The position numbers and the translations under genes are program-made. Below are positions 35,092 to 37,757 of a stretch of 64,000 bases of DNA, piece by piece. Within the stretch, counting starts at the first letter, position 1. Every line of letters starts with the position of its first letter. The stretch comes from Mycobacteriales bacterium (GTDB taxonomy: Bacteria > Actinomycetota > Actinomycetes > Mycobacteriales > SCTD01). The notes beneath the pieces were generated by a model. That model was not told the DNA's origin. It saw only the letters and a list, made by a program, of their open reading frames with translations, and ran no database searches. Location: positions 1 through 64,000 of the forward strand of contig JAUYQP010000022.1 of the NCBI GenBank assembly GCA_030697205.1, written 5' to 3'.

Positions 35092-36555
35092 GTGAAGCGC
35101 CGCGCGAAGATCGTCTGCACGCTCGGCCCCGCGACGCACTCCTACGAGGGCGTGCGCGCGCTGGTCTACGCCGGCATGGACGTCGCCCGGCTCAACTTCT
35201 CCCACGGCACCTACGAGCAGCACGCCGAGGTCTACGCGTGGGTGCGCGCGGCGAGCGACGAGTCCGGTCGCGGGGTGGGGGTGCTCGTCGACCTGCAGGG
35301 TCCCAAGATCCGGCTCGGCACCTTCGTCGAGGGCCCGGTCGTGTGGGCCACCGGCGAGACCGTGACGATCACCGTTCGCGACGTCGAGGGCACCCACGAC
35401 CTGGTCGGTACGACGTACAAGGGCCTGGCCGCCGACGCGCAACCGGGCGACCGCGTCCTGGTCGACGACGGCAAGGTCGGCCTGAAGGTGCTCGAGGTCG
35501 ACGGTGACGACGTGCGCCTGCTCGTCACCGAGGGCGGGCCGGTCAGCAACAACAAGGGGCTGTCGCTGCCGGGCGCGGTGAGCGTGCCCGCGCTGACCGA
35601 GAAGGACGAGGCCGACCTGCGCTTCGCGCTGACGCTGCGGGCCGACATGGTCGCGCTGTCGTTCGTGCGCCACGAGGACGACATCCGCCTCGTCCACGCT
35701 GTCATGGACGAGGTCGGGGCCCGACTGCCGGTGCTCGCCAAGATCGAGAAGCCGCAAGCGGTGGCCCGGCTGCGCGAGATCACCGAGGCCTTCGACGGGC
35801 TCATGGTCGCGCGCGGTGACCTCGGCGTCGAGATGCCGCTCGAGAAGGTCCCGCTGGTCCAGAAGGAGTGCGTGCAGGGCGCGCGCGAGCTGGCCAAGCC
35901 GGTCATCGTCGCGACCCAGATGCTCGACTCGATGATCACCAACAGCCGGCCGACCCGGGCCGAGGCGTCCGACGTGGCCAACGCGGTGCTCGACGGTGCC
36001 GACGCCCTCATGCTGTCGGGGGAGACCAGCGTCGGCAGCTTCCCGATCGAGGCTGTGGCGACGATGGCGCGCATCATCGTGGGGGCCGAGGAGGCCCTGT
36101 GGCGGCTCCCGGCGGTCCTCAAGGAGCCCGACACGATCGGTACCGCGATCGCCAAGGCCGCCACTGAGGTCGGCGCGGCGGTGGGCGCGAAGGCGCTCGT
36201 CGCGTTCACCCAGAGCGGCGACACCGGCCGGCGACTCGCCCGGCACCGCTCACCGATCCCGCTGCTCGCCTTCACGCCGATCCCGGTCGTCCGCAGCCAG
36301 CTGGCGCTGGTGTGGGGCGTCGAGACGTTCCTGGTGCCCACCGTGCAGCACACCGACGAGATGGTGCGTCAGGTCGACAGCGCGATGCTCGACCTCGGGC
36401 GGATGGAGCGCGGGGACCTCGTCACGATCGTCGCGGGCAGCCCGCCCTCGACGACCGGCTCGACCAACGCGATGCGCGTCCACCGGCTCGGCAACCCGCC
36501 CGCGCCCGGCAGTCGTCGGGCCACCGACCAGCAGGACGCGACCTTCCCGCGCTAG
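35092..36555 (+). CDS. pyk: Pyruvate kinase
   Basis: A 487-residue glycolytic enzyme (phosphoenolpyruvate + ADP to pyruvate + ATP). KRRAKIVCTLGPATHSYE opens the A domain, with ARLNFSHG, DLQGPKIRLG, the B-domain lid, the signature with the active-site Lys in AKIEKPQAV, MVARGDLGVEMP (~238-249), ATQMLDSMI, and AEASDVANAVLDGADALMLSGET. The C domain closes with TIVAGSPPSTTGSTNAMRVH. GTG 35092 is supported by the -10 six bases upstream. The end shares a CTAG with the convergent small gene. Confidence 0.97.
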   Translation: MKRRAKIVCTLGPATHSYEGVRALVYAGMDVARLNFSHGTYEQHAEVYAWVRAASDESGRGVGVLVDLQGPKIRLGTFVEGPVVWATGETVTITVRDVEGTHDLVGTTYKGLAADAQPGDRVLVDDGKVGLKVLEVDGDDVRLLVTEGGPVSNNKGLSLPGAVSVPALTEKDEADLRFALTLRADMVALSFVRHEDDIRLVHAVMDEVGARLPVLAKIEKPQAVARLREITEAFDGLMVARGDLGVEMPLEKVPLVQKECVQGARELAKPVIVATQMLDSMITNSRPTRAEASDVANAVLDGADALMLSGETSVGSFPIEAVATMARIIVGAEEALWRLPAVLKEPDTIGTAIAKAATEVGAAVGAKALVAFTQSGDTGRRLARHRSPIPLLAFTPIPVVRSQLALVWGVETFLVPTVQHTDEMVRQVDSAMLDLGRMERGDLVTIVAGSPPSTTGSTNAMRVHRLGNPPAPGSRRATDQQDATFPR

Positions 36556-36895: not shown

Positions 36896-36969
36896 TGCCC
36901 CCGGTGGGATTCGAACCCACACTGGCGGGTGTTTGAGACCCGTGCGTCTGCCGGTTGCGCGACGAGGGC
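36896..36969 (-). tRNA. tRNA-Leu (anticodon CAA), short variable region
   Basis: A complete 74-nt cloverleaf. The acceptor is GCCCTCG with CGGGGGC plus A73. The D-arm has the Leu-type GGCAGACGC with a 3-bp stem. The anticodon stem is CGGGT/ACCCG with loop CTCAAAC (anticodon CAA, codon UUG). The T-arm is GTGGG-TTCGAAT-CCCAC. U8-A14, A15-U48, G18, G19 and the T-loop are conserved. The variable region is only CCAGT, 5 nt, instead of the long arm normal in bacterial tRNA-Leu. CCA is not encoded. Either a functional variant or a pseudogene. Confidence 0.88.
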
Positions 36970-37154: not shown

Positions 37155-37757
37155 GTGACCGCTGCACCCACCACCCGCGTGCTCATCGCCGAGGACGAGG
37201 CGCTCATCCGCCTCGACCTCAAGGAGATGCTCCAGGAGGAGGGCTACGACGTCTGCGGGGAGGCCGGTGACGGGGCCACCGCCGTGCGGCTCGCCCAGGA
37301 GCTGCGCCCAGACCTCGTGGTGCTCGATGTGAAGATGCCGGTCCTCGACGGCATCTCCGCCGCGGAGCAGATCGTCGCGGAGCGGATCGCCCCGGTCGTC
37401 ATCCTCACGGCCTTCTCCCAGCGTGACCTGGTCGAGCGGGCCCGTGAGGCCGGTGCGATGGCCTACCTCGTCAAGCCCTTCCAGAAGAAGGACCTGCTGC
37501 CGACCATCGAGATGGCGGTGGCGCGCTTCGCCGAGCTGGTCGCGCTCGAGGGCGAGGTCGCGGACCTGTCCGGCCGGCTCGAGGCACGCAAGCTCGTCGA
37601 CCGCGCCAAGTCGGTGCTCCAGACCGACCACGGCCTGTCCGAGCCCGAGGCGTTCCGCTGGATCCAGCGGGCCTCCATGGACCGCCGGGCGAGCATGCGC
37701 GCGGTGTCGCAGGCCGTGCTGGACGGCACGGCCGGGCCGCACCTCGACGCCGGCTGA
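37155..37757 (+). CDS. pdtaR: ANTAR-domain response regulator (PdtaR-like)
   Basis: A 200-residue two-component regulator. The receiver domain has the acidic pair in VLIAEDEALI, phospho-acceptor Asp in DLVVLDVKMPVLDG (~62), a switch Thr in ILTAFSQ and Lys in YLVKPFQKKD. A coiled-coil linker leads to the RNA-binding ANTAR domain (~140-190: LEARKLVDRAKSVLQ...EAFRWIQRASMDRRASM). ANTAR proteins bind paired hexaloop hairpins in mRNA leaders and prevent termination. The usual kinase is PdtaS (HisKA_2); none is in this window, and the HisKA kinase at 24583 is of another type. Confidence 0.92.
   Translation: MTAAPTTRVLIAEDEALIRLDLKEMLQEEGYDVCGEAGDGATAVRLAQELRPDLVVLDVKMPVLDGISAAEQIVAERIAPVVILTAFSQRDLVERAREAGAMAYLVKPFQKKDLLPTIEMAVARFAELVALEGEVADLSGRLEARKLVDRAKSVLQTDHGLSEPEAFRWIQRASMDRRASMRAVSQAVLDGTAGPHLDAG

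What the first reader, a model, noticed from the sequence alone, without database searches (positions are those of the whole stretch)
36896..36969. Leucine (CAA) tRNA with a class I-like 5-nt variable region
All tertiary-contact bases are kept and the D-arm is clearly leucine-type, but the long variable arm that defines bacterial tRNA-Leu is missing. It would read UUG, a rare codon in this DNA. It may be a special UUG decoder, an acceptor for a non-standard role, or a decaying copy. Similar short forms may exist in other actinobacteria at this locus; I cannot verify this.
Basis: partly seen in the sequence, partly recalled or inferred. Interest (0 to 1): 0.65.

Follow-up and report, generated by a model that had tools for sequence, protein, structure and literature searches.

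The report
Leucine tRNA without long arm
A leucine tRNA that lacks the long side arm described as standard for bacterial leucine tRNAs turns out to be a healthy, widely conserved working form across actinobacteria and in several phages, so the arm is probably not needed to make a leucine tRNA.

Summary
Window 36896-36969 (- strand) encodes an intact 74-nt tRNA-Leu(CAA) with a 5-nt variable region (CCAGU). It is neither an oddity nor a relic. It is the only CAA gene in this assembly, and the genome's UAA and UAG leucine tRNAs are also short; only CAG is class II. In 197 genomes of the class, 81 carry a short Leu-CAA and 37 a long one. UAA is mostly short, UAG mostly long; CAG and GAG genes examined on chromosomes were all long. 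The gene sits beside pdtaR in 137 of 172 short loci and 13 of 17 long loci, so one locus holds either form, with at least four switches on a pdtaR tree. The tRNA is 97% identical among nine relatives while its flanks are about 40% identical. Short forms keep the reported LeuRS determinants (A15-U48, G18G19, A20a, A73) but have their own core. The same type occurs in phages of E. coli, Lactobacillus, Enterococcus, Synechococcus and Pseudomonas. Most likely it is an ordinary LeuRS-charged UUG decoder, in a class I-like tRNA-Leu family that I found mentioned only in passing in the open literature.

The parts
36896..36969 (-). tRNA-Leu(CAA) gene, 74 nt, class I-like
   Evidence: ARAGORN; RF00005 51.3 bits; MFE cloverleaf
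36933..36935 (-). anticodon CAA (reads UUG)
   Evidence: ARAGORN anticodon position 35 of the gene; read directly from the sequence
36921..36925 (-). variable region CCAGU, 5 nt (class II tRNA-Leu has 11-18 here in the genes examined)
   Evidence: sequence; all 82 short CAA genes in the class survey have exactly 5 nt, G47 and U48 invariant
36944..36960 (-). D-arm GCGC-AACCGGCAG-ACGC with A14, A15, G18G19, A20a and C13-A22 mismatch: the leucine-type core
36896..36896 (-). discriminator A73; no CCA encoded after it
37155..37757 (+). pdtaR-like ANTAR response regulator, divergent neighbour that marks the orthologous locus
35092..36555 (+). pyruvate kinase-like gene on the other side (convergent)
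   Evidence: ORF list (name from sequence motifs); found beside Leu-CAA in part of the loci

Best explanation
This is a genuine, functional leucine tRNA for UUG, belonging to a coherent family of class I-like tRNA-Leu. The cell's single leucyl-tRNA synthetase most likely charges it by reading A73 and the elbow/core (A14, A15-U48, G18G19, A20a), not the long variable arm. Shown here: gene integrity, conservation, orthology by locus, retained leucine core, no other CAA gene in the assembly, and a single LeuRS gene. Inferred: expression, charging by LeuRS, and decoding of UUG on the ribosome.
For: Only CAA gene in the 4.0 Mb assembly. All stems intact; 97.4% of stem cells paired in 86 distinct short CAA genes, with many two-sided changes. 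tRNA 97% identical between family loci while 120-bp flanks are 45% and 39%. A15:U48 in 177 of 177 distinct tRNA-Leu genes; A22 opposite a non-pairing 13, and A73, in nearly all short forms. In this genome the combination A15:U48 + 13-A22 mismatch + A73 occurs only in the four tRNA-Leu genes. Class-wide survey: 81 genomes short, 37 long, none with both inside the pattern. Same locus beside pdtaR for both forms. One LeuRS per genome over the family cut-off. A review reports that A15-U48, G18G19 and A20a are essential for E. coli LeuRS, that variable-arm sequence and folding do not correlate with charging, and that variants lacking the arm stay active (PMC9976931).
Against: No expression or charging data. 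No sigma-70-like promoter or terminator was found near the gene, although that scan suits actinobacteria poorly. Two of 86 short CAA genes do not show A73: L146 (U73) and L339 (probably a boundary shift in the call).
Confidence: 0.92

Rival explanations
1. A decaying copy or pseudogene of a class II tRNA-Leu that lost its arm by deletion.
For: The missing arm is unusual against the usual description of bacterial tRNA-Leu; the short CAA copy in one genome that also has a class II CAA (G034, L146) carries U73.
Against: 97% identity against about 40% in flanks, compensatory stem changes, sole CAA gene, and a coordinated different core (A9 with C12-G23 in 102 of 113 short, G9 with G12-C23 in 63 of 64 long), so it is not a plain deletion.
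Confidence: 0.03
2. A tRNA with leucine anticodon used for a non-translational role (amino-acid donor for a modifying enzyme) or as a regulatory RNA.
For: Class I shape; rare codon.
Against: No other CAA decoder exists in the genome; the neighbours pdtaR and pyk are equally beside class II CAA genes; the same type occurs with TAA and TAG anticodons and in phage tRNA clusters.
Confidence: 0.03
3. It is charged with an amino acid other than leucine (UUG recoding) by another synthetase.
For: Class I shape would remove one feature that separates it from class I tRNAs.
Against: It keeps the leucine core, which no other tRNA type of the genome has in combination; orthologous loci swap between short and class II tRNA-Leu, which would change the code each time.
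Confidence: 0.02

Closest known systems
Canonical bacterial tRNA-Leu (class II)
   Same: Leucine anticodon, A73, A14, A15-U48, G18G19, A20a, non-pairing 13 and A22; same genomic locus in relatives
   Different: 5-nt variable region instead of 11-18; C13-A22 with A9 (C9 here) and mostly C12-G23, instead of G13-A22 with G9 and G12-C23
Animal mitochondrial tRNA-Leu(UUR)
   Same: Leucine tRNA for UUR without a long variable arm; identity reported to rest on A73 and A14 (PMC9976931)
   Different: Here a bacterial chromosome, a bacterial LeuRS with editing domain, intact stems and co-existence with class II tRNA-Leu in the same cell
Short tRNA-Leu(TAG) of a mycobacterial tRNA cluster (PMC6582537), and the M. 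tuberculosis set in which tRNA-Leu-2, -3 and -5 are singled out as having a long loop (PMC11541572)
   Same: Passing mentions of what is probably the same tRNA type
   Different: Treated there as a cluster peculiarity or not discussed; no survey, locus analysis or core analysis
[quoted passage not shown]
   Same: CAA anticodon without a long arm
   Different: That gene is a tRNA-Met with a changed anticodon; here the core is leucine-type and conserved across many families

Membership tests
Transfer RNA (Rfam RF00005) | cloverleaf scoring above the gathering threshold | tested here: met
   51.3 bits against 29
Class II bacterial tRNA-Leu | long variable arm (10 nt or more) | tested here: not met
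   5 nt, CCAGU
tRNA-Leu (identity, regardless of class) | A73, A14, A15-U48, G18G19, A20a | tested here: met
   elements as listed in PMC9976931
tRNA-Leu (identity, regardless of class) | leucine anticodon | tested here: met
   CAA
tRNA-Leu (identity, regardless of class) | charged by LeuRS | not testable with these tools
   needs aminoacylation; a single LeuRS gene is present with editing domain
tRNA pseudogene | broken stems, relaxed conservation, functional copy elsewhere | tested here: not met
Allo-tRNA with 8/4 or 9/3 acceptor branch | acceptor/T-stem lengths other than 7/5 | tested here: not met
   7/5

The most novel reading that the evidence does not exclude
A coherent second architecture of bacterial tRNA-Leu (class I-like, own core, NCAGU variable region) exists beside the class II one. 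It has replaced it, or been replaced by it, repeatedly at UUR and CUA codons in actinobacteria, and is shared by phages of several phyla, which may have moved it between hosts or used it because it evades a check that reads the long arm.
Probability: 0.3. Interest if true: 0.75.

Novelty: new variant of a known kind. Interest (0 to 1): 0.58.

Why it matters
General accounts, and some software motifs, treat a long variable arm as a mark of bacterial tRNA-Leu. Here many actinobacteria decode UUG and UUA, and some CUA, with tRNA-Leu lacking the arm, while using class II forms for CUG and CUC in the same cell with one LeuRS. That gives natural paired substrates for the question of what LeuRS, SerRS, modification enzymes and tRNA-attacking toxins read in the arm. 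It also warns against classing such genes as mispredicted or pseudo, and against tRNA-seq pipelines that assume an arm for Leu.

Tried and rejected
A genome-contig scan with a pattern off by one base found nothing and was repeated with the right spacing. The antisense Plastid-ycf2 hit is far below its gathering score and was dropped as chance. The fold-energy z-score (-0.94) is not evidence either way. A promoter/terminator scan gave nothing. A paper on M. tuberculosis LeuRS and the variable arm that I know of was not held. Nine literature searches found no dedicated description; subscription papers could not be searched. The pattern surveys require GGCAG in the D-loop, so they miss genes with GGTAG or GGAAG there, and bldA-type genes; their counts are lower bounds, not a census.

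Full report
What is there. The - strand of window 36896-36969 encodes an intact tRNA with anticodon CAA. Its four stems are 7, 3 (plus a C13-A22 mismatch), 5 and 5 pairs, and the variable region is CCAGU. The minimum-energy fold is the cloverleaf. The gene is about 186 bp from, and divergent to, a pdtaR-like response regulator gene that starts at 37155, and convergent with a pyruvate kinase-like gene.

Is it alone? In the 4.0 Mb assembly, 44 tRNAs pass Rfam's score. Reading them with ARAGORN gives four tRNA-Leu: CAA, UAA and UAG with 5-nt variable regions, and CAG with 15. A broader pattern for any CAA anticodon followed by a T-arm, with a variable region of any length, hits only this gene. 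So the short form is the only CAA gene found, and two sister isoacceptors are short as well.

How widespread? A BLAST search finds relatives in 50 of 61 genomes of the family and order. Every one of the 30 fetched as loci reads as tRNA-Leu(CAA) of 74-75 nt before the CCA end. A pattern survey of 197 genomes of the class finds 81 genomes with a short CAA gene (always exactly 5 nt; G47 and U48 invariant) and 37 with a long one (13-17 nt). None has both within the pattern; one genome outside that set, G034, has both. My hand counts from the tables are about 94 short and 24 long for UAA and 19 short and 63 long for UAG. All CAG and GAG chromosomal genes examined were long. Short UAA or CAA genes also occur in other families of the phylum outside the class, while many others there have only long ones. 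The scan of named genomes stopped at 119 stretches, all with Actinomycetota names, among them Mycobacterium, Corynebacterium, Rhodococcus, Streptomyces, Amycolatopsis, Micromonospora and Cellulomonas.

Same locus, two forms. The pdtaR gene lies beside the CAA gene in 137 of 172 short loci (usually divergent, 50-300 bp away), but also in 13 of 17 long loci. On a tree of the pdtaR proteins the label short/long needs at least four changes. The class of the tRNA has therefore switched in place several times. Long and short forms differ in a coordinated way in the core: G9 with G12-C23 in 63 of 64 long genes, A9 with C12-G23 in 102 of 113 short ones. The window's gene and close relatives form a third state, C9 with G12-C23. 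That argues for replacement between two established tRNA types rather than simple loss of the arm (inference).

Selection. Nine family members are 97% identical over the tRNA but about 45% and 39% identical in the 120 bp on either side. In 86 distinct short CAA genes, 97.4% of stem cells are paired, with many two-sided changes. One oddity is an A31-C39 mismatch in 34 of the 86. This is not a decaying gene.

Mechanism. The review PMC9976931 reports that E. coli LeuRS needs A15-U48, G18G19, A20a and A73, that variable-arm sequence and folding do not correlate with charging, and that variants lacking the arm remain active. All 177 distinct tRNA-Leu genes collected here, short or long, keep A15-U48, and nearly all keep A14, A22 opposite a non-pairing base 13, and A73. 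Within this genome no other tRNA type has that combination. There is one LeuRS gene over the family cut-off per genome; in this genome it has the usual catalytic, editing and anticodon-binding domains. The simplest account is that LeuRS charges both shapes through the elbow and the discriminator. Charging itself is inferred.

Beyond actinobacteria. BLAST of short sequences against phage records finds many annotated tRNA-Leu genes. Phage loci read in full carry the same type, with a 5-nt variable region (mostly NCAGU), C13-A22, A15-U48 and A73; they come from phages of E. coli (wV8), Lactobacillus, Enterococcus, Synechococcus, Prochlorococcus, Streptomyces, Corynebacterium, Mycobacterium and Pseudomonas. 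Base 9 and the D-stem of three of them are printed shifted by one base, because ARAGORN started those genes one base early. The same tRNA shape is thus carried into hosts of several phyla.

What is known. Passing remarks exist: a short-loop tRNA-Leu(TAG) in one mycobacterial cluster (PMC6582537), and a statement that in M. tuberculosis tRNA-Leu-2, -3 and -5 in particular have a long loop (PMC11541572). Phage records annotate such genes as tRNA-Leu. No paper found in the searchable open library describes the family, but subscription papers were not searched, so priority is uncertain.

Verdict. Observation confirmed; not a pseudogene and no sign of a special role; an ordinary UUG decoder of an unusual and widespread shape. 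New variant of a known kind.

Noticed in passing
genome G000 (whole assembly of the window): No tRNA-Leu(GAG) gene was found in the assembly, although CUC makes up 48% of leucine codons in the window's CDS-like ORFs and most relatives have a second class II tRNA-Leu. Probably an assembly gap, but not shown.
   Followed up: partly
L031:4001-5280 (Tsukamurella tyrosinosolvens NZ_LR134447.1): A site-specific integrase gene abuts the 3' end of the orthologous short tRNA-Leu(CAA), which suggests the tRNA serves as an attachment site for an integrated element.
   Followed up: no
L236:601-674 (Mycobacterium phage Bonray): A short tRNA-Leu with GAG anticodon, an anticodon that was always class II in the chromosomal genes read here.
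   Followed up: no
L357:151-227 (Escherichia phage wV8), L358, L359, L360, L362: Phages of E. coli, Lactobacillus, Synechococcus, Enterococcus and Prochlorococcus carry class I-like tRNA-Leu of the same type.
   Followed up: partly
L146:124-200 and L119:116-201 (genome G034): One genome has both a class II and a short Leu-CAA; the short copy has U73 instead of A73.
   Followed up: no
short tRNA-Leu(CAA) genes in general: A31-C39 mismatch at the end of the anticodon stem in 34 of 86 distinct genes; unexplained.
   Followed up: no
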